Below are positions 14,481 to 40,953 of a stretch of 63,816 bases of DNA, piece by piece. Source of the DNA: a virus; the IMG/VR virus record IMGVR_UViG_3300032224_001028, positions 1-63,816 of that record; one strand, 5' to 3'. Position 1 is the first letter of the stretch; the number at the start of each line of letters is the position of its first letter. Made by a program: the position numbers and the translations under genes. The notes under the pieces were generated by a model. It searched no databases. It worked only from the letters and a program-made list of their open reading frames with translations, and was not told the origin of the DNA.

Positions 14481-14491
14481 AGGATAAATAT

Positions 14492-15061
14492 ATGGATGGA
14501 AACGATTACGTCTTAAAAAGCGAAAACCTTCAAAATCAGGATACTCAGACGAGTACTGCCACAAGCACTTCTACTAGCACTGGAACGAGTACAGGAACGA
14601 GTACAGGAACCAGTACAGGAACGAGTACAGGAACCAGTACAGGAACGAGTACCGGAACTAGCACAGGAACGAGTACCGGAACCAGCACAGGAACGAGTAC
14701 CGGAACCAGCACAGTAACGAGTACCGGAACCAGCACAGGAACGAGTACCGGAACCAGCACAGGAACGAGTACCGGAACCAGCACAGGAACGAGTACCGGA
14801 ACTAGCACAGGAACGAGTACCGGAACCAGCACAGGAACGAGTACCGGAACTAGCACAGGAACGAGTACCGGAACTACCACCGGAACCAACACGGGAACCG
14901 AAACGGAAAGTCGTAGCGGATCCGCTAGCACAACTTTGTCTAAGACTGATTCTGGTGTTCAAAATAGCAATTCAAACTCAAACGAGAACGCTACTGAGTC
15001 CGAAAGGGCCAATCTCGCTTGCGTATGCAAGTTCTCGGTAGCAATTAGAGGAGGGTTATGA
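14492..15061 (+). CDS. protein with a long Gly-Thr-Ser-Thr repeat tract
   Basis: 189 aa. A short N-terminus (~25 residues) leads into about 27 G-T-S-T units, then a polar tail ending in a Cys-containing segment (A-C-V-C-K-F near residue 178). Like its left neighbour it rests on a 12-base in-frame repeat, but with different composition. The end overlaps the tail fibre gene (ATGA). A flexible, possibly O-glycosylatable Ser/Thr stalk is conceivable given the phage's glycosyltransferase, but this is inference. Confidence 0.7.
   Translation: MDGNDYVLKSENLQNQDTQTSTATSTSTSTGTSTGTSTGTSTGTSTGTSTGTSTGTSTGTSTGTSTGTSTGTSTVTSTGTSTGTSTGTSTGTSTGTSTGTSTGTSTGTSTGTSTGTSTGTSTGTSTGTTTGTNTGTETESRSGSASTTLSKTDSGVQNSNSNSNENATESERANLACVCKFSVAIRGGL
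14560..14900. repeat. 12-base tandem repeat (GTST codons)
   Basis: The unit is close to GGAACGAGTACC alternating with GGAACCAGCACA, giving a 24-base higher-order period. It is coding and in frame. It is not a CRISPR array, because there are no spacers. Confidence 0.9.
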
Positions 15062-21057: not shown

Positions 21058-21405
21058 TTATTTGAGCTTATAAGCCGATTCTAGCAGTGCCTTCTTGTTG
21101 GCAAGTAGGCGACGCACTAAACGCAACTCCTCTTTATTTAACCCCTTTGGAGGCTCAAACTGATTCACCCATACCGGATCCTCAGTTCCTAGTCTTTGCT
21201 TCGCCCATAGAGCTTGAAGTTCATTGGACTCCTGCTTTGTCAGGCCCATGGCACGAACTACCAATCGAAGGATTTCGCCTTTGACCGGACGCCCCTTCTC
21301 AATTTTCCAGATTGTCGAACGATGCAGACCGCACTTTTTGGCGATCTCGCCCATGGTCATTCGCTTTTCGGAACGCTTCCATGCAAACCATTGGTTTATT
21401 TTCAT
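21058..21405 (-). CDS. XRE-family helix-turn-helix regulator
   Basis: 115 aa. Residues ~15-50 form the HTH (M-G-E-I-A-K-K-C-G-L-H-R-S-T-I-W-K-I-E-K-G). The C-terminal half is charged and possibly dimerising. It is a candidate repressor of the lytic programme. It converges with the zinc-ribbon gene (8 bases apart) and is separated by an 79-base AT-rich gap from the next minus-strand gene, enough for its own promoter. Confidence 0.75.
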   Translation of the reverse strand: MKINQWFAWKRSEKRMTMGEIAKKCGLHRSTIWKIEKGRPVKGEILRLVVRAMGLTKQESNELQALWAKQRLGTEDPVWVNQFEPPKGLNKEELRLVRRLLANKKALLESAYKLK

Positions 21406-21744: not shown

Positions 21745-22548
21745 TTAACTGGCGAGTGCTAGCTCGTCAGCAGTCCTCCATAGGGCCGAATTGATCCGGT
21801 GATCTGCCACAAGGGAACGCACTGACCCCATCCGGCGCATTCTGTTTTTGGGAGTCACTGCATTGGCAACCCTGACAGGGGATCCATAATCACCTCGAAT
21901 CACGTTTTCCTGTACTCGGTTCAGAACAACCCAAAGGTTGTCTCCCCGATCCTCTTCACGACGGACAATATCGACCACTCGACTAGGCTGAGTAGGCCAT
22001 TTCGTCCGATCCTCACCATAACGGGCAGTCAATCCCGTTTCAGCAAGCCGGATGGCCCCGTCCATACCGCAGGGGGTTTTCATCCAGTTCTGAATGCCAT
22101 TCTCAAGCAGGGGTAGGTTGTCCATGATCTTAGCGATAGCCTCTTGGATTCCTTCCACTGCTTTGATCGAGTGACGCACACGGTACGAAAACGAGGAGCC
22201 GGCAAAGGCCGGAACGCTCAATCCGTTCGTGCATATCAATCGTGTCAGGCCGAGCGAAACGAGAAAGCCACTCGTTCCATCGTGAGAATTAAAGAGATCC
22301 ACTGAAGGTGAAACCTCATTCAATATCACCGGCGCATTTTCCCGCCGGAACGTCAGCTTGTGTTTGCTAAACACACTGGCGTTACGACGTCCTACCTGAC
22401 GTGCGCTTGCGACTCCCCATCCGGTTTGAGCCAAACTCGTCACGATCTCACGGGTAGGGACGAATCCGTACCGGTTCGATAAGTGCGAACTTGGCGTCTC
22501 GGCGAATACTGCCGGAGCCTTAGTTGCGATTTGTTCTGTTGTTAGCAT
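21745..22548 (-). CDS. DUF932-like phage/plasmid protein
   Basis: 267 aa. The general pattern fits DUF932: an N-terminal S-N-R-Y-G-F-V-P-T region, F-N-S-H-D-G-T-S-G-F near residues 86-95, and I-C-T-N-G-L near 106-111. These proteins are common on phages and plasmids but their biochemical role is not settled. It is the largest gene of the minus-strand operon; its expression probably starts upstream near 23.55 kb. Confidence 0.7.
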   Translation of the reverse strand: MLTTEQIATKAPAVFAETPSSHLSNRYGFVPTREIVTSLAQTGWGVASARQVGRRNASVFSKHKLTFRRENAPVILNEVSPSVDLFNSHDGTSGFLVSLGLTRLICTNGLSVPAFAGSSFSYRVRHSIKAVEGIQEAIAKIMDNLPLLENGIQNWMKTPCGMDGAIRLAETGLTARYGEDRTKWPTQPSRVVDIVRREEDRGDNLWVVLNRVQENVIRGDYGSPVRVANAVTPKNRMRRMGSVRSLVADHRINSALWRTADELALAS

Positions 22549-23080: not shown

Positions 23081-23391
23081 GATTCCTCCTCTTGAGCGAG
23101 ATTCGCCCAGTTCAGTGCCTCGTAAGCCCGATTTCCGATTGAAGAGCGAACCATGATTGATCCGCTTAATTGCTTCTCATCCTTGGTGATCCGCCCGAAC
23201 AAGGCCAAGTCCCTGATGTCACCCAACGCCTCACGATAGAGGGCGATCTCAGTCTTGAGTTCCTCGATTCGCTTGATCTGTCGAGCGCACAGAACTCGAA
23301 CTCTGCTCTCTGCCATCTTGTACGGGTCGTCACTGAGATAGCTGGCAATAATTCTGGATTTGATTCGATTGGTCGTGCTTCTGGCTATCAT
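23077..23391 (-). CDS. small helical protein, unknown
   Basis: 104 aa, basic N-terminus and a long amphipathic helix (I-K-R-I-E-E-L-K-T-E-I-A-L-Y-R-E-A-L). Coupled by overlaps to genes on both sides. Function unknown. Confidence 0.55.
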   Translation of the reverse strand: MIARSTTNRIKSRIIASYLSDDPYKMAESRVRVLCARQIKRIEELKTEIALYREALGDIRDLALFGRITKDEKQLSGSIMVRSSIGNRAYEALNWANLAQEEES

Positions 23392-23537
23392 GTTCGTGCC
23401 TCCTTGGTTTGAGTTTTTGGTGCAGGGAAGAGCAGTGGGATGGCGATTGAAGCGATGGAGGCCAGAAGCCAGCAGATCGCAAAGACGATCAACCGTGTTT
23501 TTCCCGCCGGAGAGAGAGGGGGGAGGAAGATTTTCAT
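23388..23537 (-). CDS. 49-aa single-pass membrane protein
   Basis: A short frame beginning M-K-I-F-L-P-P and containing one membrane helix (L-I-V-F-A-I-C-W-L-L-A-S-I-A-S-I-A-I) ends in an ATGA overlap with the next gene on the minus strand. It is the first gene behind the promoter-like motif at 23.57 kb. Function unknown. Confidence 0.5.
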   Translation of the reverse strand: MKIFLPPLSPAGKTRLIVFAICWLLASIASIAIPLLFPAPKTQTKEART

Positions 23538-23582
23538 GACAACTTCATTACCCCAGTTGTTGCCATTCTGACAACAAGTAAA
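23538..23582 (-). promoter_or_regulatory. degenerate copy of the TTGTTGTCA promoter motif
   Basis: On the minus strand TTGTTGTCA (23575-23567) is followed 17 bases later by GTAATGAAG, in the register where the five good copies have CTAT. It probably drives the minus-strand operon 23537-21485. Confidence 0.4.
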
Positions 23583-23610
23583 TCACGTTGAATGACAGTG
23601 GTTAAGGATT

Positions 23611-23859
23611 TCAACGCAATTTACCTCCTATTTTTTTGACCTTCTTGGCGCACGTTGGACAAGTCGGGATCCCGTTTTGATCCTCGATGGAAGTGTCCCA
23701 GCAGAGATATTTTCCAGAAATCTTGCAACCCATCTCACCATTGATTACCGCATGAGTGAGATAGGCCCACGTTTTATCTTTTTTGTAGAAAGGATGCTCA
23801 CTGGCATTCCCGCCAACTCCGTAGATCTCGATTGGGGCGTAGGTTCTGGACAGGCTCAT
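23611..23859 (-). CDS. small Cys-pair protein, unknown
   Basis: 82 aa from the ATG at 23859, which overlaps the upstream TGA (ATGA). An ATG at 23871 is possible. A C-P-T-C pair near the C-terminus and earlier Cys residues suggest a zinc site. No family recognised. Confidence 0.5.
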   Translation of the reverse strand: MSLSRTYAPIEIYGVGGNASEHPFYKKDKTWAYLTHAVINGEMGCKISGKYLCWDTSIEDQNGIPTCPTCAKKVKKIGGKLR

Positions 23860-24311
23860 CGCTTCCTCCATGCCCTGAGCCGGTTGATTGCGTAAGCCTC
23901 GGTGTCCACCTCGGAGGATTTGCCACGGGATCCCCAGCAGTAGCCTCGTTTGTTCTTTTGTTTGTACTGCCAGAGGTGGCGCAGTTCGTGAGCCATGATG
24001 ACAACCAGTTTCTCGACTCGGTTGTAAAGCCAGTACCTTTTATCCTTATGCTGGCCGTACTGGTACGGTTGGTAGTAACTGGGTTTATCAAGGGCATCGA
24101 TCCGGCAGACGACGAACGGACAACTCCGGTCGTGGAATCGACTGCGACGATAAGCACGACCGGCGACTCCTGCGCTTTTTGTATTGTCCCCGTAGTGCCT
24201 TCCAAGGTTGGAAACCCGCACGTCAAAGTTTTTCACTCCGGAGGGAACTGTGTGCCGGATTATCTCCCGCACCATCTCATCCGGAATTGTCGTGAAGTTT
24301 TTCAGTCTCAC
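23856..24311 (-). CDS. HExxH-type zinc metalloprotein (SprT/M48-like)
   Basis: 151 aa with A-H-E-L-R-H-L-W-Q (His-Glu-x-x-His) near residues 102-110 and a downstream S-E-V-D-T-E-A-Y-A, the arrangement of a short gluzincin. It may be a protease, but small phage members are uncharacterised. The GTG start (24311) overlaps the TGA of a 10-codon leader frame that begins at the GTG of the promoter cassette at 24338, and GGAAA lies upstream, so leader and gene may be coupled. Confidence 0.65.
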   Translation of the reverse strand: MRLKNFTTIPDEMVREIIRHTVPSGVKNFDVRVSNLGRHYGDNTKSAGVAGRAYRRSRFHDRSCPFVVCRIDALDKPSYYQPYQYGQHKDKRYWLYNRVEKLVVIMAHELRHLWQYKQKNKRGYCWGSRGKSSEVDTEAYAINRLRAWRKR

Positions 24312-24337
24312 TTTTTTTCCTTTCTCATTTTCTCATT

Positions 24338-24377
24338 CACACATTCAATAGTACAAACTAAGTATTTTTGACAACAA
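24338..24377 (-). promoter_or_regulatory. promoter-start cassette copy, minus strand
   Basis: TTGTTGTCA at 24377-24369, then 17 bases, CTAT at 24351-24348, 7 bases, and GTG at 24340-24338. It fires left toward the HExxH gene. Spacing is identical to the four plus-strand copies. Confidence 0.7.
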
Positions 24378-24419
24378 ATATATTTCACTGACTATCAACT
24401 AAATAAAAGATTAAAAAAG

Positions 24420-24459
24420 TTGTTGTCACTTTGCATTAGGGCCGGCTATGGAATGCGTG
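24420..24459 (+). promoter_or_regulatory. promoter-start cassette copy 1, plus strand
   Basis: TTGTTGTCA at 24420-24428, N17, CTAT at 24446-24449, N7, GTG at 24457. It sits back to back with the minus-strand copy, 42 bases between the two TTGTTGTCA elements, forming a divergent control region. Confidence 0.7.
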
Positions 24460-24672
24460 AACTTTCCAATCGGCAAAAGAAACTTTCGGAACCGGCGGGA
24501 GGCCGTCATCGCTCTCCGGTCTGCGTTCCGTGCAGTGGCGGATATAGGAGAAGTGCCGGATGTACCTAACAACATCGAATACACGACTGAGGTATCCAAC
24601 ACTACTCTCTATGCCCTCCTCTCCGGAACCAGCATTTTCTTCGGGACAATCAAACTAGAAGGAGGATCATGA
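24448..24672 (+). CDS. small protein, unknown
   Basis: 74 aa from ATG 24448 or 71 aa from the in-frame GTG 24457, which is at the fixed position of the promoter cassette. A basic N-terminus (G-K-R-N-F-R-N-R-R-E-A) precedes helical and polar sequence. It opens the 24.4-29.6 kb accessory operon. No family recognised. Confidence 0.55.
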   Translation: MECVNFPIGKRNFRNRREAVIALRSAFRAVADIGEVPDVPNNIEYTTEVSNTTLYALLSGTSIFFGTIKLEGGS

Positions 24673-25523
24673 GAACAATGCCATTTCCTCAGTACCGGAA
24701 ACCAAACGGAGATTACAATACTTTCCGAGAACTAAAGCACCTGAGCGAATCGGAAGTACGGGCAATCGTCGAGGAACTTACGGATGCTTACAAGAAAACC
24801 AAGAATAGCGATGAAAGATGGGAAGTTAGTCAAACACTCTACCCATACCGAAGTGCGCTTGAGAGGTTCGAAAAAGCGAGCAGGGCCAAGGCCCGTGAGG
24901 AAAAGAAAAACTCCAAGATGGCAGAGGAGCAGAGGATCAAAGAGCTAGCCTCCTCGCTACGGATAAATCTGATACCCGTCGAAAAAGCCCTAGCCAAGTC
25001 GATCATCAAACGGAAAAACGGGGATCTAAAAGATGGGATTGAGTTCTTCAAGAAACTCAAAAACAAGATCCGGATTGTTAGTTGCCGTGAGGCTTTCGAC
25101 TTTGATAAAGGTGTTTTCCAATACTCCCAGTTCAGGGAATGCTACGGGGATCTCTTCGAGTATGACTACGATGATTCCTACGGAAATAGGGGCAGTGCAA
25201 CAGTCTCCAAAAAGAAGGGGATTGAGGAGAAGATCGAGACAGACTCGAAAGACTATGCCAAGTCAGCTTGTGACGCCTTCAGTTGCAAAATCGTTCGCCG
25301 GACTGAGGAGGTGATCGAAGCCGGACGACTTGGTACGACTGAAAAGATCGTCAAGACTGCCTACGTCGGAGCAGTCGATCCGTGGGCCGGCGGGAAAGTG
25401 ATCGTGACGACGACTAACGGAAAGTACGTTTGGAACACGAAAGTCATCCTAAACTTCTCCAAGCTGGGCAACCCCTTCAACCAATGGCCCACCAGACTAG
25501 AGGGGAGCAACGAAGAATTATGA
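24669..25523 (+). CDS. hypothetical protein, Lys/Glu-rich
   Basis: 284 aa. Residues ~20-140 are strongly charged and helical (K-A-S-R-A-K-A-R-E-E-K-K-N-S-K); the C-terminal half has more beta-like sequence with a Trp/Gly region near residues 235-262. It overlaps both neighbours by 4 bases. No domain recognised; it is the largest protein of this accessory block. Confidence 0.6.
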   Translation: MRTMPFPQYRKPNGDYNTFRELKHLSESEVRAIVEELTDAYKKTKNSDERWEVSQTLYPYRSALERFEKASRAKAREEKKNSKMAEEQRIKELASSLRINLIPVEKALAKSIIKRKNGDLKDGIEFFKKLKNKIRIVSCREAFDFDKGVFQYSQFRECYGDLFEYDYDDSYGNRGSATVSKKKGIEEKIETDSKDYAKSACDAFSCKIVRRTEEVIEAGRLGTTEKIVKTAYVGAVDPWAGGKVIVTTTNGKYVWNTKVILNFSKLGNPFNQWPTRLEGSNEEL

Positions 25524-25741
25524 GTACTAAAAATAGTTGTTGTCAGAACGCCGGCGACCGTACTATGGAAACTGTGAACGAAAAAAACCTCTGGCCCCCC
25601 AATCGGTACGTTGTTGTGAGCAAATACACGGGAGCAAGTGAGGTTTATGAATCTCTTGTTGAGGCCGAACTCAACGGCAACGTGATAGGTGAGCTATTCT
25701 TTTTAGTGGGAAAAACCAAAAACCAAAAGGAGGTCACATGA
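25520..25741 (+). CDS. small cassette protein, C-C-Q-N type
   Basis: 73 aa from ATG 25520 (overlapping the previous TGA), or 55 aa from GTG 25574, the start predicted by the promoter cassette that lies inside the first codons. It shares V-N-E-K-N-L with the gene at 28855, and its K-N-Q-K C-terminus and AAAAGGAGG ribosome site with two other genes. Function unknown. Confidence 0.55.
   Translation: MSTKNSCCQNAGDRTMETVNEKNLWPPNRYVVVSKYTGASEVYESLVEAELNGNVIGELFFLVGKTKNQKEVT
25537..25576 (+). promoter_or_regulatory. promoter-start cassette copy 2
   Basis: TTGTTGTCA at 25537-25545, N17, CTAT at 25563-25566, N7, GTG at 25574. Confidence 0.7.
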
Positions 25742-25965
25742 GCTTAAGCGAACTAAACGAAAAGACGGGCATCTCAGAAGAGAGGCTGGAACAAATGTTC
25801 TTGTTCTTGTTTCGGCTTCGTGATTCGGCAGTAACGAACATGTTCGGGGCCGGATCCTACTTGGAGGGCCGGTTCTCCATCAAGCCACGGCAATCGACGC
25901 CGGTTCTGGTGTACTGGATGGAAAACTGCGAAACCTTGGCTGGAAAGATGGGGGTAACACTATGA
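25738..25965 (+). CDS. small protein, unknown
   Basis: 75 aa, helical N-terminus, overlapping neighbours by 4 bases at both ends. Its start is served by the AAAACCAAAAGGAGG cassette at the end of the preceding gene. No domain recognised. Confidence 0.6.
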   Translation: MSLSELNEKTGISEERLEQMFLFLFRLRDSAVTNMFGAGSYLEGRFSIKPRQSTPVLVYWMENCETLAGKMGVTL

Positions 25966-26357
25966 GCCTAAGCGGGATAATTGCAACGAAGATAGAGTTT
26001 GAAGAGGACAGATCCTCTAATTGCACTAGATTGCGTTCAGATTTGGTCGATTTGTCTCCATCAAAACGCACTAAAAACTACGGATATATCGTAACTTTCA
26101 GGCATCGCAGGAAGGCAAATAGATGTTCCTATGGAGGATGGAAGGCAAGGAAGGCAAGCGTTGATTTTGAATTGTATGTATGCGGAATGTATCGTCGTGA
26201 CGACAATACAAGGTGGACAAGGAGAAGCGACGTTCCATTAAAACACAGAAAAGTTTGGGACTTCATGGAAAACTCTGCTCCCGTTGTATGGGAAAAGAAC
26301 AAATGGTATATGTCTTTGTGGAGTGAATCGAAAAACCAAAAGGCGGATCTAGCGTGA
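25962..26357 (+). CDS. small basic protein, unknown
   Basis: 131 aa, Arg/Lys/Trp-rich, with beta-like segments (Y-G-Y-I-V-T-F-R-H-R-R-K-A). It ends in S-K-N-Q-K-A-D-L-A, sharing the K-N-Q-K end cassette. It shares M-S-L-S with its upstream neighbour, but little else. Function unknown. Confidence 0.55.
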   Translation: MSLSGIIATKIEFEEDRSSNCTRLRSDLVDLSPSKRTKNYGYIVTFRHRRKANRCSYGGWKARKASVDFELYVCGMYRRDDNTRWTRRSDVPLKHRKVWDFMENSAPVVWEKNKWYMSLWSESKNQKADLA

Positions 26358-26896
26358 GCGACGAGATCACCAAGCAGTACCACATCGAGTTTGTTCTAGG
26401 GATGAGTAAATCCACCCTGAAGCGCAAAATCTGGAATATGGCAAACAGTCCGGAAGCAATTCAGGCGTATAAGCTACTAAGTTCCAGAAGGAACGGACTC
26501 TTCACCTTGTCCGAGCTTTCCGGTTTGGCAGAATGGATTACTTGGGACGACGCATCAGCTAACGGAGAGCCGGATGCAGTTACCGGCCTAACCCTGTATC
26601 GAGATCGACGATGCAAACGCCGGTATGACCGAGCTTGCAGAACGATTCGTGAACTTGAAAAGATTGAGAAAGCAACCCAAGCAACCCAAGCAATTCAAGC
26701 AATGCAAGCAAACAGAATAGAAGTTTATATGTCCGAAAAGCGCATCAAAGAGTTTTCCAACCTTGATGATGCAATTATTTGGGCAAACCCTCGGCCTTGG
26801 TCGCATAGTCTTTTTTTTGAGTACTGGAACAGGAATGAATTAGTTCACAGTGGAATACTAAAACAAATCATAACAACCAATATGGAAGTCACATGA
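26354..26896 (+). CDS. hypothetical protein, possible HTH
   Basis: 180 aa. Residues ~38-110 have helical spacing (S-S-R-R-N-G-L-F-T-L-S-E-L-S-G-L-A-E-W then a Y-D-R-A-C-R-T-I-R-E-L helix) that could be a winged helix. A short A-T-Q-A-I-Q-A-M-Q-A repeat follows near residue 117. Function unknown. Confidence 0.5.
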   Translation: MSDEITKQYHIEFVLGMSKSTLKRKIWNMANSPEAIQAYKLLSSRRNGLFTLSELSGLAEWITWDDASANGEPDAVTGLTLYRDRRCKRRYDRACRTIRELEKIEKATQATQAIQAMQANRIEVYMSEKRIKEFSNLDDAIIWANPRPWSHSLFFEYWNRNELVHSGILKQIITTNMEVT

Positions 26897-27075
26897 ACCT
26901 AACCGAAGATATTCAAGATACGGACTGCCGGAAGTCTTTCGTGATGGTAAAAGGGGATTGGATCGATGCTTCCAAAGTCGAGTTCTTGGACATATCAGAG
27001 GATTTATACGGGCGAGATTGCATGACATTCATTTATGAGGGCAACCAATACGAAAGCGTTGTAGTGACAAAGTGA
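26893..27075 (+). CDS. small acidic protein, unknown
   Basis: 60 aa, overlapping neighbours by 4 bases on both sides; beta-like, with D-W-I-D-A-S-K-V-E-F-L. No family recognised. A GGAAGTCACATG ribosome-site region related to the repeated RBS cassette precedes it. Confidence 0.5.
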   Translation: MNLTEDIQDTDCRKSFVMVKGDWIDASKVEFLDISEDLYGRDCMTFIYEGNQYESVVVTK

Positions 27076-27356
27076 AAAATACTTGTTGTCAAAATCCAAG
27101 TACCGGCACTATTGAAGTCGTGAAACAAAGAAACCTCCCTGCCGGCCCCACAACTGCCAACAAAACTTGGCAGGAACGGGTGAACGAGCTTGAAGAGGAG
27201 GGATTTACCACCAGTGACGCACAAGGGGCCGTGGACGTCGAAATCATGGAAGGTTGGAGGCCCAGCGACTATCAACCTTGGATGAACCTTCCTCTTGGGG
27301 CCGATCTCTCCTACGAGGAAATGGGGAAATGGCTACGGAAGCAGGGGACAAAATGA
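27072..27356 (+). CDS. small cassette protein, C-C-Q-N type
   Basis: 94 aa from GTG 27072 (GTGA overlap) or 78 aa from the cassette GTG 27120. Its N-terminal stretch parallels that of the gene at 25520 (K-N-x-C-C-Q-N, then R-N-L-P). The rest is unrelated. Function unknown. Confidence 0.55.
   Translation: MKNTCCQNPSTGTIEVVKQRNLPAGPTTANKTWQERVNELEEEGFTTSDAQGAVDVEIMEGWRPSDYQPWMNLPLGADLSYEEMGKWLRKQGTK
27083..27122 (+). promoter_or_regulatory. promoter-start cassette copy 3
   Basis: TTGTTGTCA at 27083-27091, N17, CTAT at 27109-27112, N7, GTG at 27120. Confidence 0.7.
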
Positions 27357-27607
27357 GCGAGAAGATTACATTAGATTTGACTTTCCCTGCGTACCTAAAG
27401 GTTCTCAAGTTGGACAATACTCTTGTTGGAGGCCCAAGCTACATGGGCTTTGCCTACTTCTGGAATCACGAATACCGGCACTACCTAAGAGATGCCAGTG
27501 AGGTTGAAAGGGTCAGGGTTCACCGGAAACTCCTTAAGGCCGGCCTAGATGTCGATGGATGTAGCAAAAAACATGAAAAAATAATAATAAAGGAGGTAGG
27601 CGAATGA
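27353..27607 (+). CDS. small protein, unknown
   Basis: 84 aa from ATG 27353 (ATGA overlap). Contains Y-F-W-N-H-E-Y-R-H-Y-L, a His/aromatic helix, and a basic C-terminus. AAAGGAGG near its end serves the next gene. No family recognised. Confidence 0.55.
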   Translation: MSEKITLDLTFPAYLKVLKLDNTLVGGPSYMGFAYFWNHEYRHYLRDASEVERVRVHRKLLKAGLDVDGCSKKHEKIIIKEVGE

Positions 27608-27813
27608 AAACATATTTACTCAGATCAACTCGAAATGGAAATTACTACGGGTTAAGTAAGCCATACTTTTGCCCTTTCAATGGACAATTAAAAACCGTCG
27701 AAGGGTTCTTCGAGGGATGCTTCAAAGATGATGCGCTTCGCCTCACAAAACAGGAAGCAATCGATGCTTGGAAACGGTTTGATCCAACTAATCTTGAGAT
27801 TGTTGAACTATGA
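27604..27813 (+). CDS. small protein, unknown
   Basis: 69 aa, aromatic-rich N-terminus and an amphipathic C-terminal helix. Coupled by 4-base overlaps. Function unknown. Confidence 0.55.
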   Translation: MKTYLLRSTRNGNYYGLSKPYFCPFNGQLKTVEGFFEGCFKDDALRLTKQEAIDAWKRFDPTNLEIVEL

Positions 27814-27995
27814 GCGACAACGCCCCATTCCAAGTCGATGAAATTGTGATCATGCACAGTCCATTTACGGAGGAGGACGTGCTGGTAAATTACAGGGGCC
27901 GGAATGGTGCGAAAGCAGTCGTTATCCCAACCCCAAAGGGACTGCAAATGTCCGTGCCGGTGGAATGGCTACGGAAACAGGAGGAAAAGAAATGA
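27810..27995 (+). CDS. small SH3/chromo-like beta protein, unknown
   Basis: 61 aa with short alternating beta segments (V-D-E-I-V-I-M, V-L-V-N-Y-R-G-R, K-A-V-V-I-P-T-P-K-G, V-P-V-E-W-L). The strand pattern suggests a small barrel, but no family is recognised. Confidence 0.5.
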   Translation: MSDNAPFQVDEIVIMHSPFTEEDVLVNYRGRNGAKAVVIPTPKGLQMSVPVEWLRKQEEKK

Positions 27996-28225
27996 AAACC
28001 AAAGCAGAAAAGACGGGAATCAAGAAAACATCAGAAGCGACTAGGCGGAGGGTAGAGAAAATGATAACGCTCAAACTGTTCAAAAACCTTGGGCAAGCAG
28101 TTGCGCTAATTAATGACGCATCTTCGCTTATCGACTACGAGGATGAAAAGAATCCTAGCTACGGAATAAAATTCAGATGCGAGAAGTTTGTTAAGAAGAT
28201 GCTGAAGGAATGGCAAGGGAAATGA
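27992..28225 (+). CDS. small basic protein, unknown
   Basis: 77 aa from ATG 27992 (ATGA). Lys-rich N-terminus and helical body. Function unknown. Confidence 0.5.
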   Translation: MKTKAEKTGIKKTSEATRRRVEKMITLKLFKNLGQAVALINDASSLIDYEDEKNPSYGIKFRCEKFVKKMLKEWQGK

Positions 28226-28446
28226 AGTTTTACGAAGTACAATGGAGTGAAGGATTAGCCGGAAACATTCGACAATTTGCGACTACCCTAGCCGGAGTTA
28301 AGGAAATAAAGGCAAAAGCCAACCAGCGTAATGAAACCCCACGGGACTATTTCATTGTGACAAAGGTATCGTTTAAGAATCCTTCTGAACTGTGCAAATG
28401 GTTAAATAAGCATGCGAGAAGTGCAGAATGTTGTGGAGACGAATGA
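28222..28446 (+). CDS. small protein, unknown
   Basis: 74 aa from ATG 28222 (ATGA overlap), preferred over ATG 28210. Mixed alpha/beta; ends in a Cys pair (A-E-C-C-G-D-E). Function unknown. Confidence 0.5.
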   Translation: MKFYEVQWSEGLAGNIRQFATTLAGVKEIKAKANQRNETPRDYFIVTKVSFKNPSELCKWLNKHARSAECCGDE

Positions 28447-28775
28447 AAGCCATCCTAATTAACCCATCAGCTACGCCGGCCATACAAGAAGTCGAGATCG
28501 GCGGGGAACTCGAAGAGGCTCAAAAGCTAGTTGGGGGCTACATTGAAATGATCCGGCTAGGGGCCAAGGACGCTATTTTTATAGACGAGGATTGGAATAA
28601 TAAGGATCCCAAGAAACGCTTTTCCGGATCCTTTGAAATAGGTGCAGAAAAATACGGCAAGTTCACAATCGGAGGCAGGGGATTGATCGTCGGAATCAAG
28701 GGATCCGGCAACACTGACACGTCGCTAAACCTACTAAAAGCCTCCCAGTTGGTGACAGTACTCTCCAAAGTTTAA
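28443..28775 (+). CDS. DUF3846-like protein
   Basis: 110 aa from ATG 28443. The pattern I-G-G-E-L-E-E-A-Q-K-L-V-G-G-Y-I-E (residues ~19-35), followed by a D-A-I-F-I-D-E-D-W-N segment, resembles DUF3846, a small family found in phages and mobile elements with no settled function. Last gene before a short non-coding gap. Confidence 0.5.
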   Translation: MKAILINPSATPAIQEVEIGGELEEAQKLVGGYIEMIRLGAKDAIFIDEDWNNKDPKKRFSGSFEIGAEKYGKFTIGGRGLIVGIKGSGNTDTSLNLLKASQLVTVLSKV

Positions 28776-28792
28776 TTTCATTATTTACATAA

Positions 28793-28808
28793 AACGCTCA
28801 TAACGAGC
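28793..28808 (+). terminator. weak hairpin at end of a sub-operon
   Basis: CGCTC-ATAAC-GAGCG with AAATACTTTTG after it. It is a short stem and only a possible terminator, but it lies between a gene end and the next promoter cassette. Confidence 0.3.
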
Positions 28809-28817
28809 GAAATACTT

Positions 28818-28857
28818 TTGTTGTCAGTTTCGTTGCGTCACGACTATTGGAATCGTG
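28818..28857 (+). promoter_or_regulatory. promoter-start cassette copy 4
   Basis: TTGTTGTCA at 28818-28826, N17, CTAT at 28844-28847, N7, GTG at 28855. Here the region upstream of GTG has no usable start codon in that frame, which supports a DNA-level and not a protein-level reason for conservation. Confidence 0.75.
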
Positions 28858-29061
28858 AACGAAAAAAACCTCCCCGCCACCGGCCCCGCCAAGACGACCT
28901 ACAAAGTTAGCTTCAGCGACGGGGACGAAACCTTTTGCCACCTCTACAATAACCTTGCTGATGCGGAAGAAGCGAAACAATGGTGCATCGAAAATGAGGG
29001 GAATGGGAAATTGGAAATCTTCAGCCAAGAAACAAAAAACCAAAAAGGAGGACAGACATGA
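28855..29061 (+). CDS. small cassette protein
   Basis: 68 aa from GTG 28855. It begins with N-E-K-N-L-P and ends with E-T-K-N-Q-K, so both ends match the shared cassettes while the middle (beta/helix mix, D-G-D-E-T-F-C-H-L-Y) is different. No Shine-Dalgarno is visible before the GTG, so the mRNA may be leaderless. Confidence 0.6.
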   Translation: MNEKNLPATGPAKTTYKVSFSDGDETFCHLYNNLADAEEAKQWCIENEGNGKLEIFSQETKNQKGGQT

Positions 29062-29303
29062 AAACACGGAAACTGAAACTGCCGGCACTTAACAAGTACG
29101 CCAACCTCAAGGGCGATGACAGGGAGAACGTCGCAAAACTTCTCCTCGGTTCGCCACGGGGACGATACGTGATGGGTCAGGCTCTCGCCATCGGATACGA
29201 AACCCTGAAGAACACGGAACCCAGCAACGCCGAGGACATCGCCTTGATCGGCGACACGTTCTTCAAGCCCTTCTACCAGTTGAAAGTGAGTGGGGTTCTG
29301 TGA
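29058..29303 (+). CDS. small protein, unknown
   Basis: 81 aa, basic N-terminus and helical body; AAAAAGGAGG lies 10 bases upstream. Higher GC than neighbours. Function unknown. Confidence 0.55.
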   Translation: MKTRKLKLPALNKYANLKGDDRENVAKLLLGSPRGRYVMGQALAIGYETLKNTEPSNAEDIALIGDTFFKPFYQLKVSGVL

Positions 29304-29638
29304 AGTACCTGACCCTACTCCTCCTGACTGCCACCGGAGCCTTCGCCGACGGATACGAGGCATACAAGCGGGATTTCATGCTTAAGCAGTTGCCTCAGGT
29401 CATGTCGTCGAAGATGCCGGAGGAAGAGCGAAACGTGCGGATAGCGACGATGGAGTACCGGTGCTACCGGTACTACACCGAGCTAACAGATGAACGGAAG
29501 TTCTACTGGGAGTGGATGGATAAGTACGGCCTGAACGCAACAGAGTACGACCGAGAGAAACTTCGACGCTACATCGACACTCACTTCAGCTTGGGCCGAC
29601 GTACTTCCGGCCAGAGCTACGAGAACTTTGCTTTTTGA
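29300..29638 (+). CDS. small exported protein
   Basis: 112 aa from GTG 29300. The N-terminus is a signal peptide (M-K-Y-L-T-L-L-L-L-T-A-T-G-A-F-A, cleavage near residue 16), followed by a charged Tyr/Arg-rich helical protein. A periplasmic role is inferred. Its 3' half overlaps an antisense gene. Confidence 0.55.
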   Translation: MKYLTLLLLTATGAFADGYEAYKRDFMLKQLPQVMSSKMPEEERNVRIATMEYRCYRYYTELTDERKFYWEWMDKYGLNATEYDREKLRRYIDTHFSLGRRTSGQSYENFAF

Positions 29639-29782
29639 TTTCAGATTCGAGGCAACGAGCTTCGACAAGTAGGCAGACACACTAAGTTTTTCGAGACGGG
29701 CAAGACGCTGAAGGCTGAGTTTATTAGTTTGCGAAATCCATAATCCAACGAAAGTCCGTGTTGGATGTCGTTTGTTGGGCAT
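29483..29782 (-). CDS. ribbon-helix-helix-like DNA-binding protein
   Basis: 99 aa from ATG 29782 (AGGTAGG upstream; ATG 29839 would give 118 aa). Residues ~8-45 have the Arc/MetJ-type layout: a short strand (T-F-V-G-L-W-I-S) and two helices (K-L-S-L-Q-R-L-A-R-L-E-K then S-V-S-A-Y-L-S-K-L-V). The rest is poorly conserved-looking and antisense to the exported-protein gene. It faces two palindromes at 29828-29863 and may bind them. Confidence 0.5.
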   Translation of the reverse strand: MPNKRHPTRTFVGLWISQTNKLSLQRLARLEKLSVSAYLSKLVASNLKSKSKVLVALAGSTSAQAEVSVDVASKFLSVVLCCVQAVLIHPLPVELPFIC

Positions 29783-29827
29783 ACGGATACCTACCTGCTT
29801 CTCGGTAGAATCCAAGTAATTTAAGCC

Positions 29828-29863
29828 GGTGTAAAACACCGCATCTTTCTGGTGTTTAACACC
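29828..29863. promoter_or_regulatory. twin palindromic operators
   Basis: GGTGT-AAA-ACACC (29828-29840) and GGTGT-TTA-ACACC (29851-29863) are two copies of one 13-bp palindrome with centres 23 bp apart, about two helix turns. They sit in the divergent gap between the ribbon-helix-helix gene and the excisionase-like gene. Confidence 0.6.
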
Positions 29864-29910
29864 TTAGAAATAGCATTTACAATAAAGTGACATAATTGTA
29901 ATTAGCTTTG

Positions 29911-30207
29911 ATGGATCTCCCTGCCGGAAACGGAAGAGGACGAATTTCTGCTCACGAAAAGAGAAGATTAGATCTAGCCCTGAGCCTCAGGGAACTTTCG
30001 ATTGCCTACGGATTAACCTATGCCCGTATCTGCAAACTCAGAGAATGCGCCGGCTTTCCGATTTTGGAAGGAGTAGTTGTGCCGTCTGATTTTGACCGTT
30101 GGCGAGAGGAGTACTACCGGCGTCCACGTACTTCCTTAGATCTCCCATCTCAAACCGATCATACATTCGGTGAACTATTTCAGAACTATGATTCACCAGA
30201 CGCATAG
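29911..30207 (+). CDS. excisionase-like small DNA-binding protein
   Basis: 98 aa from ATG 29911. L-S-L-R-E-L-S-I-A-Y-G-L-T-Y-A-R-I-C-K-L-R near residues 23-43 is an HTH/winged-helix pattern as in MerR-type excisionases. It is followed by D-F-D-R-W-R. It runs into the 3' end of the integrase gene on the other strand (170-base antisense overlap). Role as a recombination directionality factor is inferred from position. Confidence 0.5.
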   Translation: MDLPAGNGRGRISAHEKRRLDLALSLRELSIAYGLTYARICKLRECAGFPILEGVVVPSDFDRWREEYYRRPRTSLDLPSQTDHTFGELFQNYDSPDA

Positions 30208-31117
30208 CCGAGGCACGGGGTACTTCGGCCCTACGCATTCGGCTCACACGGGTAATACGCAGACTGTGGAATGTATGGTTCGGCATACCAATTCGGTCAA
30301 ACATCCGGCGAAACCGGTAGGACGCCTTGCGGGGCATCAAGCAAGTAACCTTTGCCCCGCTTTCTACGATATGGGTCAGGAGGGGGAGGATCGATGCGGG
30401 GATGGGGATAAGGAAGGCTTTCGTTTCCCCGCCCTTAGGGTTAGGGAAAGTGACTGTTCGCCTTTCCAGATCGATACAAGAGGTGGGAATGCAACACTCC
30501 CTTAGCCGGCATCCGGTCGCCAAGCTGATCTCAAAGGCTACGCCCATCCAAGAGGGCTTTTTCATAAGTGCCATTCGGCACTTTTGGATCTCCTCATCGG
30601 TTAGCTCCGGACGGATTCTCTTTGCCGATTGTTGGCATTTATAGTCGTCCATGGGGCGACCTTCCATTTTCCCCAAAAGGCGTCCCTGCCGTTGGATAAT
30701 CTTCAGGATCTTCAACTCCTGAATCATGGTATTCCGAGAAAGTTTTTTTCTCGAAAGATTTTTCTTTACGTCATGTCTCCAAAGTATAAACAAGTTTGCG
30801 TGAATTGGCCCAAACTCATCCAGCCTAATTTTTCTCAGAGTCATAAATTGATTAATGCTTCGCCACGCCGAGAGGTAACGCTCACAAGTTCCAGTCATGA
30901 TCGGCATGTTTTCAATCATCGGAACAACCCAGTCGGTGCTTTTATTTTGGGGAACGCTAACCTCGCCAACGGAAAGGGTGGACGCATAAACTTTGGCACG
31001 GGCCGTAGCCAGTGGATCGGCAACAAGGTAGCGAGTAGCCTTAGCAACCCAGCGGTTGCCCTGCTTAATTCTAACGTACCAGAACTTCGAACGCTTTCTC
31101 TTATAGATACTCGCCAT
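30038..31117 (-). CDS. int: tyrosine recombinase integrase
   Basis: 359 aa from ATG 31117 (M-A-S-I-Y-K-R-K; an upstream ATG at 31147 is less likely). It has an N-terminal arm-binding-like segment, a core-binding helical domain (~60-160), and a catalytic domain with all key residues: Arg204 (G-C-R-L-R-E), His284-x-x-Arg287 (H-S-L-R), His310 and the nucleophile Tyr319 (R-M-Y-D-R). It catalyses integration into the host chromosome; the likely attP is just upstream of the gene. Good evidence that the phage is temperate. Confidence 0.92.
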   Translation of the reverse strand: MASIYKRKRSKFWYVRIKQGNRWVAKATRYLVADPLATARAKVYASTLSVGEVSVPQNKSTDWVVPMIENMPIMTGTCERYLSAWRSINQFMTLRKIRLDEFGPIHANLFILWRHDVKKNLSRKKLSRNTMIQELKILKIIQRQGRLLGKMEGRPMDDYKCQQSAKRIRPELTDEEIQKCRMALMKKPSWMGVAFEISLATGCRLRECCIPTSCIDLERRTVTFPNPKGGETKAFLIPIPASILPLLTHIVESGAKVTCLMPRKASYRFRRMFDRIGMPNHTFHSLRITRVSRMRRAEVPRASAMRLVNHSSEIVHRMYDRFEMGDLRKYVDAGSTPLANGQNQTAQLLLPKSESRRIL

Positions 31118-31189
31118 GTAACAAGTGTCACACGCAAATCTAATCAAATCAAATCGATAAGTGGCGGATTAAGTCACTATCATACAAAT

Positions 31190-31237
31190 CTTACCCTTGT
31201 ATCCTACCGTGGGTTCAAATCCCACCCCGTCCGAATG
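31190..31237 (+). other. candidate attP with tRNA 3'-end identity
   Basis: GTGGG-TTCAAAT-CCCAC followed by CCCGTCC has the exact form of a tRNA T-arm plus the 3' acceptor strand. No matching 5' half is present, so this is not a whole tRNA. An adjacent ATACAA...TTGTAT stem precedes it. Phages with tyrosine integrases often carry a tRNA 3' end beside int, so that integration restores the host tRNA. Confidence 0.6.
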
Positions 31238-31362
31238 TTACCAGTAAGTCAGTTACACTGCGCCAAGTATGCTTGTGGCATATGGGCGCATCTATTCACA
31301 CCAAAAATAAATAATTACCACGGGAGGCGTGTGCGCTTATCCCGTGCAAAGAAAGGCACAAA
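31238..31362 (+). promoter_or_regulatory. leader region before the recombination operon
   Basis: A non-coding gap with a CACGGGA...TCCCGTG stem (31319-31346). It must contain the promoter for the rightward recombination/replication operon, but no clear -35/-10 pair was seen. Confidence 0.35.
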
Positions 31363-31488
31363 ATGAACAAAATATACTACGCCCTATTTGAAGTTTTTAT
31401 CTTTTTGAAGGACTACTTCGAATACATCGCAAGGAAAATGGACGACCTCGCCGTGTGGTTCTACGAAAGGACGAACCAGCATGACTAA
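31363..31488 (+). CDS. 41-aa protein, unknown
   Basis: A short frame rich in aromatic and hydrophobic residues (Y-Y-A-L-F-E-V-F-I-F-L) overlaps the next short gene by 8 bases. An AAAGG site lies 10 bases upstream. Function unknown. Confidence 0.45.
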   Translation: MNKIYYALFEVFIFLKDYFEYIARKMDDLAVWFYERTNQHD

Positions 31489-31630
31489 TCCTAAACAGGA
31501 TAGTAAGGAGCCGAGTTGCGACCACGAACTAGACGTCAAAAAAGACATGAGCTTCCTCAACGTCCCTACCAGCACGAAGTCCCAATTACGGGAGGACGGA
31601 ATGGGATGGGAATACTTACACAACCAATAA
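31481..31630 (+). CDS. 49-aa protein, unknown
   Basis: A short polar frame (ends M-G-W-E-Y-L-H-N-Q) ending 10 bases before recT, with AAGGAG at its end serving recT. Function unknown. Confidence 0.45.
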   Translation: MTNPKQDSKEPSCDHELDVKKDMSFLNVPTSTKSQLREDGMGWEYLHNQ

Positions 31631-31640
31631 GGAGACAACC

Positions 31641-32363
31641 ATGAGCGACAAAGAAATTGCAGTAAAAAGCGAGAACACGATTCGGGAACTGATCGGATCC
31701 GACGAGTTCAAAAAGAAGATTTCCGATGCCCTGCCAAAGCACCTGACGCCGGAACGATTCGCACGGGTGGCACTGATGGCGATTAACAAGACGCCGGCCC
31801 TGCTGAATTGCACGAAGCCGAGCCTCTTTCAGTGCTTGGTAGATCTTGGGGCCATGGGCCTAGAACCGGATGGGCGACGGGCGCACCTGATCCCTTACGG
31901 CAACGTGGCTACTCTGGTGGTGGACTACAAAGGGATCCTTGACCTAATCATGCGCTCGGGCCACGTCCTATCGATCCATGCCGACGTAGTTTGCGAGGGT
32001 GACGTTTTTGAATACGACCTTGGGGAAATCAAACAGCACAAGATCGATTTCCGGAAGGATCGTGGGGCCGTAATTGCGGTCTATTGCATGATCCGCATGA
32101 AGGACGGATCAAACAAGTGTGAAGTCATGACAAAGGCCGACGTCGAATCGATCCGGTCACGTTCCAAGGCCGGTAAGTCTGGCCCTTGGGTTACGGACTG
32201 GAATGAGATGGCAAAAAAGACGGTATTCCGACGGGCATCCAAGTGGGTTCCCTTGTCGCCCGAAGTGCGGGATCAGATCGAACGTGAGGACGTCCATCAG
32301 TTTGCCGGTAAAGCGTCGAGCATACCGGTTGTTGCAACACCCATCTTTGAGGAAGCAAAATGA
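31641..32363 (+). CDS. recT: RecT-family single-strand annealing protein
   Basis: 240 aa. Typical RecT features are present: R-F-A-R-V-A-L-M-A-I near residues 39-48, C-L-V-D-L-G-A-M-G-L-E-P-D near 65-77, then A-H-L-I-P-Y-G and V-V-D-Y-K-G-I near 81-99. RecT proteins anneal complementary single strands during phage recombination and replication. The next gene encodes a Cas4/RecB-type nuclease, which would supply the resected ends. Confidence 0.9.
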   Translation: MSDKEIAVKSENTIRELIGSDEFKKKISDALPKHLTPERFARVALMAINKTPALLNCTKPSLFQCLVDLGAMGLEPDGRRAHLIPYGNVATLVVDYKGILDLIMRSGHVLSIHADVVCEGDVFEYDLGEIKQHKIDFRKDRGAVIAVYCMIRMKDGSNKCEVMTKADVESIRSRSKAGKSGPWVTDWNEMAKKTVFRRASKWVPLSPEVRDQIEREDVHQFAGKASSIPVVATPIFEEAK

Positions 32364-40495: not shown

Positions 40496-40953
40496 GGCCG
40501 TTGTATGAAACACAAGAGGATCTTTCACGGGAAAGGGAAGTTGGCGAAGCGATTGCCGAAAAGTGGAAGGTCGGTATCGAAAAGTTGCCGATCAAGTACA
40601 TCGTCGATTACGGGCTTACCCGTAACGAAAGGGTTGTTGCGTGGGCCGAGATTCGTTGCCGTTCGAAAGTATGGGAATGTCCTTTTATCTCAGCGCAAAA
40701 GTATTGGTCAGGGATCGATCTTTCAAAAAAGTCAGGACTCCCGTTCTTCCTCATATTCTCTTTTCCAAAACTTGTCTGCTACCGAAAGATCGAGGAAGGG
40801 GAGTTTCCGGACATTGTGTTTGGGGGAAGAGGTCAGATTCGGGACTGGCAGGATCGTGAGCCAATGGTGGTCATGGACATTCAGAGCTTTACTAAGGTGG
40901 ATGTTGTTGTTAATCTGACAACAACATGGAGCGAACATTTACATCAAGTCTAA
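40492..40953 (+). CDS. PD-(D/E)xK-like small nuclease or accessory protein
   Basis: 153 aa. W-A-E-I-R-C-R-S-K near residues 51-59 followed by a K-Y-W-S-G helix and F-F-L-I-F-S-F-P is the beta-beta-alpha-beta pattern of small PD-(D/E)xK proteins, but the expected Lys is replaced (E-I-R). The ATGA overlap couples it to the HTH gene. Confidence 0.45.
   Translation: MRPLYETQEDLSREREVGEAIAEKWKVGIEKLPIKYIVDYGLTRNERVVAWAEIRCRSKVWECPFISAQKYWSGIDLSKKSGLPFFLIFSFPKLVCYRKIEEGEFPDIVFGGRGQIRDWQDREPMVVMDIQSFTKVDVVVNLTTTWSEHLHQV

What the first reader, a model, noticed from the sequence alone, without database searches (positions are those of the whole stretch)
24338..28857. Five copies of a promoter-start cassette with fixed spacing
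TTGTTGTCA-N17-CTAT-N7-GTG occurs at 24377-24338 (minus), 24420, 25537, 27083 and 28818 with no spacing change. The N17 is unrelated among copies and two copies are not in an open frame, so conservation is at the DNA level. TTGTCA is -35-like with normal promoter spacing, but CTAT is a poor -10. The expected transcription start falls at the GTG, so these genes may be read from leaderless GTG mRNAs. It may be a promoter for a special sigma factor, or a repressor operator.
Basis: seen in the sequence. Interest (0 to 1): 0.8.

Follow-up and report, generated by a model that had tools for sequence, protein, structure and literature searches.

The report
Repeated leaderless promoters heading phage operons
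A bacterial virus, probably of Verrucomicrobiota, carries the same short start signal at the head of each block of its accessory genes, and the layout suggests that the messenger RNA begins right at the first codon, with no leader; the individual pieces have precedents, but this fused, repeated form was not found elsewhere.

Summary
TTGTTGTCA-N17-CTAT-N7-GTG occurs exactly five times at the stated places, and no 9+4 dyad reached five copies in 60 shuffles. A sixth, weaker copy lies at 23577-23538 (-). Four copies recur in each of two close relatives; none occurs in 21 further related records or 387 Verrucomicrobiota genomes.

Two facts carry the interpretation. (1) In 24457-29638, 13 of 16 gene junctions are 4-nt overlaps; the only three gaps each hold a cassette, so every cassette heads an operon. 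It lies where transcription should start and lacks a Shine-Dalgarno, which most other genes have.

Best reading: an operon-heading promoter making leaderless GTG mRNAs. TTGTTGTCA is also the half-site of a clade-specific dispersed palindrome, TTGTTGTCAnnnTGACAACAA, so the -35 block may double as a regulator site. Akkermansia, in the probable host phylum, has 10% leaderless starts (PMC4782308). No start site was mapped. Known neighbours: leaderless phage mRNAs, start-associated sequences, stoperators. New variant of a known kind.

The parts
24338..24377 (-). Cassette 1: TTGTTGTCA at 24377-24369, CTAT, GTG at 24340-24338; divergent from cassette 2
   Evidence: orthologues in G001 and G002
24308..24340 (-). 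10-codon minicistron VNEKMRKEKK* opened by the GTG of cassette 1; its TGA overlaps the GTGA start of the next gene by 4 nt
   Evidence: kept in both relatives as VNEKMRKEKR* and VNEKIRKEKK*
23856..24311 (-). 151-aa gene behind cassette 1 (only a sub-threshold DUF6782 metallopeptidase match)
24420..24459 (+). Cassette 2; GTG at 24457 starts a 71-aa gene
24457..25523 (+). Operon 2: two genes joined by a 4-nt overlap
25537..25576 (+). Cassette 3 in a 50-nt gap; GTG at 25574 starts a 55-aa gene (MNEKNL...)
25574..27075 (+). Operon 3: five genes joined by 4-nt overlaps; absent as a block from G001 and G002, joined there at the cassette
27083..27122 (+). Cassette 4 in a 44-nt gap; GTG at 27120 starts a 78-aa gene (MKQRNLPAGP...)
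27120..28775 (+). Operon 4: seven genes joined by 4-nt overlaps
28818..28857 (+). Cassette 5 in a 79-nt gap; GTG at 28855 starts a 68-aa gene (MNEKNLPATGP...)
28855..29638 (+). Operon 5: three genes joined by 4-nt overlaps; in G002 the body of the first gene is replaced while cassette, first 11-12 codons and tail are kept
23538..23577 (-). Degenerate cassette 6 (3 mismatches): ACTTGTTGTCA...GGTAATGAAGTTGTC, directly before the ATG at 23537; also a TTGTTGT-N7-ACAACAA palindrome
23388..23537 (-). 49-aa ORF headed by cassette 6; overlaps the next gene (start 23391) by 4 nt
40904..40924 (.). Best copy of the dispersed palindrome TTGTTGTCAnnnTGACAACAA (0 mismatches in the 14 scored positions), 2 nt before the ATG at 40926; other sites start at 2859, 9278, 18345, 23557, 33302, 37914, 46135, 55833
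21058..21405 (-). 115-aa HTH protein matching phage transcriptional regulator families; candidate binder of TTGTTGTCA (inferred, untested)

Best explanation
Each cassette is a phage promoter fused to a start codon. TTGTTGTCA acts as the -35 region (containing TTGTCA), the NRCTAT block and the GRA behind it as -10 and discriminator, and RNA synthesis starts at or within a nucleotide or two of the invariant GTG, so the first gene of each operon is translated from a leaderless GUG mRNA; the other genes of the operon are translated by 4-nt-overlap coupling, most with their own Shine-Dalgarno. Because the ribosome can read a leaderless message only downstream of its 5' end, the first codons are part of the signal, which fits the shared GTGAA (all five copies) and the shared first codons of copies 3-5. 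The cassettes give the accessory operons one common switch: the extra TTG and the dispersed palindrome with the same half-site suggest that a phage DNA-binding protein touches the -35 block. Shown: positions, spacing, operon heads, missing Shine-Dalgarno, conservation, palindrome excess. Inferred: promoter activity, start site, leaderless translation, the regulator.
For: Exact repeat far beyond chance. In 24457-29638, 13 of 16 junctions are 4-nt overlaps and the 3 gaps (50, 44, 79 nt) each hold a cassette; over window, G001 and G002 29 of 37 junctions are overlaps, and 7 of the 8 gaps hold a cassette. In 5 of 5 copies the GTG opens an ORF ending in a 4-nt overlap with the next gene, including the minicistron of copy 1 kept in two relatives. 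Anti-SD pairing upstream of the cassette starts is 0.4, -4.9, -3.3, -1.7 and -2.4 kcal/mol against a median of -6.4 for 55 other genes and -2.9 for random 20-mers. Cassettes 1 and 2 are divergent, and the cassette is the one element that I saw shared by both directions. In gaps 3, 4 and 5 the best sigma-70-like pair uses TTGTCA of the cassette. The CTAT-to-GTG distance equals the usual -10 to +1 distance, as in TA-led leaderless genes (PMC3160421, passages). The probable host phylum includes Akkermansia, with 10% leaderless starts against 0.4% in E. coli (PMC4782308, passages). Palindrome with the same half-site: 9 sites against a mean of 0.25 in shuffles.
Against: No start site, transcript or protein N-terminus is measured. 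By recalled E. coli sigma-70 weights the cassettes are weak: best scores with TTGTCA are 9.17, 6.22, 9.17, 6.5 and 6.48 for copies 1-5, where random 110-nt segments have a median best score of 4.65 and a 90th percentile of 7.23; in copies 2, 4 and 5 that best score uses TATKGR at 18 nt, not CTAT, as -10, which would not put the start on the GTG. A -10 ending in CTAT is 15 nt from TTGTCA. On the plus strand of the divergent region a better pair, TTGACA at 24368 with TATCAA or GACTAT, would give cassette 2 a leader. Copies 2 and 3 have an in-frame ATG 9 nt before the GTG, so GTG need not be the start in those two. Copy 1's downstream gene has its own AAGG, so the minicistron may be fortuitous. 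Copy 6 keeps the first block but not CTAT or the GTG position, and its start has an upstream pairing of -6.0. Distant relatives carry start-associated repeats that do contain Shine-Dalgarno-like bases, so a translational element is possible. One gap in G001 has no cassette. Counting TA...T before 167 candidate starts of one Verrucomicrobiota contig gave only a weak rise at 6-10 nt.
Confidence: 0.6

Rival explanations
1. A start-associated translational element: the mRNA begins upstream or reads through from the previous operon, and UUGUUGUCA...CUAU lies in the leader, where a phage or host factor acts on the ribosome, like the start-associated sequences of Cluster K mycobacteriophages.
For: Distant relatives with about 54% identical portal carry other repeats at fixed distance from start codons: 13, 12, 11, 4 and 9 copies of GCAACAC-N3-AGGACTCC-N4-TATGA (up to 3 mismatches) in G014, G016, G012, G013 and G030, and 11 of a second type (up to 4 mismatches) in G025. 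Cluster K SASs sit 3-7 bp before starts (PMC3203893, passages).
Against: Those repeats contain AAGGA-like Shine-Dalgarno bases and sit before many genes, often with a 22-nt gap; the window cassette has no Shine-Dalgarno, is 40 nt long, and sits only in operon-head gaps. The divergent pair needs promoters inside about 150 nt, and the cassette is the shared element there.
Confidence: 0.17
2. Primarily an operator: TTGTTGTCA is a half-site for a phage repressor or activator, and the promoter proper lies elsewhere or is only partly made of these blocks.
For: Dispersed palindrome TTGTTGTCAnnnTGACAACAA with 9, 9, 6, 6 and 5 sites in window, G001, G002, G031 and G032 and 0-1 in nine other sequence sets; the top-ranked palindrome of all half-sites in the three clade genomes ranked; 5 of 9 sites end 2-20 nt before a start; HTH regulator gene 21058-21405.
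Against: Copies 1-5 carry one half only (best right half 5-6 of 9 mismatched). An operator does not explain the fixed CTAT and GTG distances.
Confidence: 0.12
3. A relic of duplication: one promoter-gene unit was copied and its gene bodies exchanged, so the shared blocks reflect recent descent and recombination rather than function.
For: Copies 3, 4 and 5 share N-termini; the copy-3 protein resembles a G002 protein (E 1e-10) and weakly the copy-5 protein (E 0.002); operon 3 is missing from G001 and G002 with the join at the cassette; gene bodies behind copies 3 and 5 are exchanged.
Against: Copies 1 and 2 head unrelated genes. Spacers have diverged fully between copies while three blocks stay exact at fixed distance, which drift would not do.
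Confidence: 0.06

Closest known systems
Leaderless transcripts of phages, e.g. Thermus phage phiYS40 middle and late mRNAs (PMC3594737, passages seen)
   Same: Phage genes expected to be read from mRNAs without a leader
   Different: Here inferred only; GTG starts, an invariant 9-bp block, restricted to an accessory gene region, in a different phage group
TA-led leaderless genes of bacteria (PMC3160421; Deinococcus -10 motif, PMC12340547; passages seen)
   Same: A -10-like element about 10 nt before the start codon and no Shine-Dalgarno
   Different: The -10 here is CTAT-NGRA rather than TANNNT and comes with a rigid upstream block repeated within one genome
Start-associated sequences of Cluster K mycobacteriophages (PMC3203893, passages seen)
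   Same: Short asymmetric repeats at fixed distance from starts in the non-structural part of a phage genome, in front of different gene families
   Different: SASs contain Shine-Dalgarno bases and sit 3-7 bp before mostly ATG starts; the cassette has none and contains the start codon
Operators and stoperators of mycobacteriophage L5 and relatives (PMC9283540, passages seen)
   Same: One short sequence at promoters and dispersed in the genome
   Different: L5 sites are asymmetric 13-mers bound by a monomer; here dispersed sites are palindromes and the promoter copies are half-sites; no binding is shown
T4-type PeSLs, mobile regulatory cassettes (known to me only from a passage and references in PMC4503421; the original paper looked up was not held)
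   Same: Repeated early-promoter units at which accessory genes are gained, lost and exchanged
   Different: No consistent stem-loop or terminator upstream of the cassettes; the unit here includes the start codon

Membership tests
Sigma-70-type promoter | -35 like TTGACA | tested here: met
   TTGTCA in 5 of 5, 5 of 6 bases
Sigma-70-type promoter | -10 like TATAAT at 16-18 nt | tested here: inconclusive
   NRCTAT at 15 nt from TTGTCA or 18 nt from TTGTTG; not listed by the 16-18 nt scan, modest scores
Sigma-70-type promoter | Transcription start 6-8 nt after the -10 | not testable with these tools
   No transcript data
Leaderless gene | Promoter -10 about 10 nt before the start codon | tested here: inconclusive
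   CTAT-N7-GTG in 5 of 5, but the -10 identity is unproven
Leaderless gene | No Shine-Dalgarno | tested here: met
   Pairing energy of copies 1-5 like random sequence; copy 2 the strongest at -4.9
Leaderless gene | mRNA 5' end at the start codon | not testable with these tools
   Needs 5'-end mapping
Start-associated sequence (Cluster K type) | Repeat with AGGAG Shine-Dalgarno 3-7 bp before the start | tested here: not met
   No Shine-Dalgarno in the cassette
L5-type operator/stoperator | Many dispersed asymmetric sites oriented with transcription | tested here: not met
   Dispersed sites are palindromic
T4 PeSL | Early promoter joined to an upstream stem-loop/terminator | tested here: not met
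   Terminator-like hits in 23300-31700 not above shuffles (12 against 10.7); of cassettes 1-5 only cassette 5 has a listed hairpin directly upstream

The most novel reading that the evidence does not exclude
A family of about 64-kb Verrucomicrobiota phages controls its accessory operons with lineage-specific start cassettes; in this lineage the cassette fuses regulator half-site, -35, -10, transcription start, GTG start codon and an N-terminal segment of about 11 codons into one exchangeable leaderless expression module, so that any gene body recombined behind it falls under the same switch.
Probability: 0.33. Interest if true: 0.66.

Novelty: new variant of a known kind. Interest (0 to 1): 0.5.

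Why it matters
If true, it gives a sequence-recognisable leaderless promoter for phages of a phylum with few genetic tools, explains how small accessory genes can be swapped and be expressed at once, and warns that gene callers will misplace these starts (ATG or TTG upstream) and miss the 10-codon minicistron. It also makes a testable case for leaderless GUG translation outside Actinobacteria and Deinococcus.

Tried and rejected
Coding explanation of the upstream blocks (the GTG frame reads CCQ or CCH, then T[IM] or AM, then V): rejected because copies 2 and 5 have a stop and no usual start codon before the block. Phage sigma factor or RNA polymerase: none seen in the 41 different ORF products scanned against Pfam and/or PHROGs (not all genes were scanned). 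Motif in host: 0 of 387 Verrucomicrobiota genomes, but by my estimate less than one exact hit is expected by chance in that much DNA, so this says little. Host search with portal in genome contigs: 98 stretches, none a relative. Leaderless signal in a host contig: too few genes. A 15-kb stretch without listed ORFs looked like recoding; it is a 5,008-aa ORF running off the record's end. Excess of single TTGTTGTCA sites genome-wide (43 against 17.6 in dinucleotide shuffles) mostly vanishes under codon shuffling (mean 30.6, sd 4.4, maximum of 40 shuffles 43), so only the palindromes are claimed. Other viral hits of the pattern (L006, L008, L009, L013, all one sequence; L010) are single copies and taken as chance. 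With the looser pattern seven further contigs had one match each and were not examined. Breakpoint clustering at cassettes is described, not counted, because local alignments extend through any repeated sequence.

Papers: passages only of PMC3203893, PMC5312081, PMC3160421, PMC12340547, PMC4503421, PMC3594737, PMC4782308, PMC10783764, PMC9283540; none read in full. Searches behind 'not found in print'.
Full report
Observation. The pattern TTGTTGTCA-N17-CTAT-N7-GTG is present exactly at all five stated places. A blind count of every 9-mer/gap/4-mer dyad in the window (12-nt repeat array masked) found only dyads of this cassette with five copies, and none in 60 dinucleotide shuffles. A weight matrix from the five copies finds one further site in the window above a score of 8, at 23577-23538 (-), with a score of 21 against 62-72 for the five; the same site is found at the orthologous place in both close relatives. 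That sixth copy keeps TTGTTGTCA and TGAAGT but has GTAA where the others have CTAT and an ATG three nucleotides beyond the GTG position; five neighbouring spacer bases vary between the three genomes while both flanks are unchanged.

Where it recurs. The window is a whole virus record whose ends repeat 123 bp, so probably a complete circularly closed phage genome. A scan of the viral collection gave 8 stretches with the exact pattern: two contigs (G001, 64,634 b; G002, 39,233 b) with four copies each, and five others with one copy each. With up to 3 mismatches 6 of 11 related records matched, but exact copies only in G001 and G002. None of 21 further related records has it at up to 3 mismatches and none of 387 Verrucomicrobiota genomes has it exactly. 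So it is clade-specific. Two of those 21 (G031, G032) are close relatives whose fragments begin beyond the region and cannot tell.

Operon heads. From 24457 to 29638 there are 17 genes. Of 16 junctions, 13 are 4-nt stop/start overlaps; the three gaps (50, 44 and 79 nt) each hold cassette 3, 4 or 5. In G001 6 of 9 and in G002 10 of 12 junctions are 4-nt overlaps; four of the five gaps hold a cassette, and the fifth (37 nt, G001) precedes an inserted gene. Cassettes 1 and 2 stand back to back in the divergent region. Cassette 1 opens a 10-codon minicistron whose TGA overlaps the start of the 151-aa gene by 4 nt, and this is kept in both relatives although the start codon of that gene changes from GTG to ATG in G001. 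Cassette 6 heads a 49-aa ORF that also ends in a 4-nt overlap.

No ribosome-binding site. Upstream pairing to the anti-Shine-Dalgarno is 0.4, -4.9, -3.3, -1.7 and -2.4 kcal/mol at cassettes 1-5, against a median of -6.4 in 55 other genes of the window (73% at -4 or below) and -2.9 in random 20-mers. Cassette 2 at -4.9 is the exception; the only AGGG there lies about 16-19 nt before the GTG, too far for a usual site (my reading of the sequence). Cassette 6, not one of the five, gives -6.0.

Extent of the unit. Copies 3-5 and their relatives share the first codons (MNEKNL, mostly followed by PA.GP, or MKQRNLPAGP) although the gene bodies differ: behind the copy-3 position the three genomes have different bodies (those of G001 and G002 share a KTWQERV segment), and behind copy 5 G002 has another body with the same tail. 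In G001 and G002 the whole of operon 3 is missing, with the join at the cassette. This fits a unit that serves as a joint in gene exchange, as reported for T4 PeSLs in a paper of which I saw one passage (PMC4503421).

Promoter quality. By recalled E. coli weights the cassettes score 6.2-9.2, the best pair in gaps 3, 4 and 5 and on the minus strand of the divergent region, but on the plus strand there TTGACA at 24368 scores higher (8.76), and 10% of random 110-nt segments reach 7.23. The promoter reading therefore rests on position, spacing and conservation rather than on consensus strength.

Host. No named phage is close by DNA. A 32%-identical integrase lies in a Verrucomicrobiaceae MAG, and among 387 genomes of that phylum 5 have a portal match, one (G276) at 48% over most of the protein, on a 63,387-b contig; the same genome has an integrase match at 1e-40. 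In that phylum Akkermansia muciniphila has 10% of mapped starts at the start codon against 0.4% in E. coli (PMC4782308), and Akkermansia is listed as Shine-Dalgarno-scarce (PMC10783764).

A second layer. The block TTGTTGTCA is also half of a dispersed palindrome, TTGTTGTCAnnnTGACAACAA. With up to 2 mismatches in 14 scored positions the window has 9 sites (shuffle mean 0.25, maximum 2 in 40 shuffles; inside ORFs 5 against a codon-shuffle mean of 0.30, maximum 2 in 60). G001 has 9, G002 6, G031 6 and G032 5; seven distant relatives, the G276 phage contig and a G276 host contig have 0 or 1. Among all 7-mer half-sites and gaps 0-12 this element ranks first in window and G001 and joint first in G002, with 11, 10 and 6 sites against at most 5-6 for any palindrome in five comparison genomes (G002 is shorter, and its 6 does not stand out on its own). 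Five of 9 sites end 2-20 nt before a start codon, the portal gene's among them. Cassettes 1-5 carry one half only. A 115-aa HTH protein of the leftward genes matches phage regulator families and is the obvious but untested candidate.

Family context. Distant relatives lack the cassette but carry other start-associated repeats: GCAACAC-N3-AGGACTCC-N4-TATGA (up to 3 mismatches) 13, 12, 11, 4 and 9 times in G014, G016, G012, G013 and G030 (in one row each of G014 and G016 there is no ATG), and CGGACG-N6-GTTTAAKGGTATGA (up to 4 mismatches) 11 times in G025, one row without ATG. These contain Shine-Dalgarno-like bases and resemble Cluster K start-associated sequences. The window clade thus differs from its relatives in using a promoter-like cassette without one.

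Verdict. The finding is real and specific. Best explained as operon-heading promoters that yield leaderless GTG mRNAs (0.6), possibly under one regulator through the -35 block. Every piece has a precedent; the fused, repeated form in this phage group is a new variant. I found no report of it in the held library, which lacks most subscription journals.

Noticed in passing
window 2859, 9278, 18345, 23557, 33302, 37914, 40904, 46135, 55833: Dispersed clade-specific palindrome TTGTTGTCAnnnTGACAACAA; 5 of 9 sites end 2-20 nt before a start codon.
   Followed up: partly
L130, L134, L158, L143, L145, L146, L137, L139, L140 (distant relatives): Lineage-specific start-associated repeats, GCAACAC-N3-AGGACTCC-N4-TATGA and CGGACG-N6-GTTTAAKGGTATGA, at fixed distance from early-gene starts.
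   Followed up: partly
L181, L182, L197 (phage contig of G276): Repeat CGACAAAACGCG, several copies immediately followed by GTG or near ATG.
   Followed up: no
window 48791-63814: A 5,008-aa ORF runs off the end of the record and probably continues into the 950-aa ORF at 5-2857; a giant virion protein. Relatives hold ORFs of about 2,300 to 4,000 aa.
   Followed up: partly
window 25713, 26326, 29030: A second small repeat, roughly AAAAACCAAAAGGMGG, forms the ribosome-binding site of three coupled genes.
   Followed up: no
window 24368-24398 (+): TTGACA with GACTAT at 16 nt or TATCAA at 19 nt between cassettes 1 and 2, present in G001 and G002 too; a possible leadered promoter for operon 2.
   Followed up: partly
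window 14014-14900: Array of a 12-nt repeat inside two virion-region genes; similar arrays in G001 and G002.
   Followed up: no
L025 7897-8736 (G001): An extra gene of about 279 aa inserted just before cassette 5, absent from the window.
   Followed up: no
window 21745-22548 (-): DUF932 protein in the leftward gene block.
   Followed up: no
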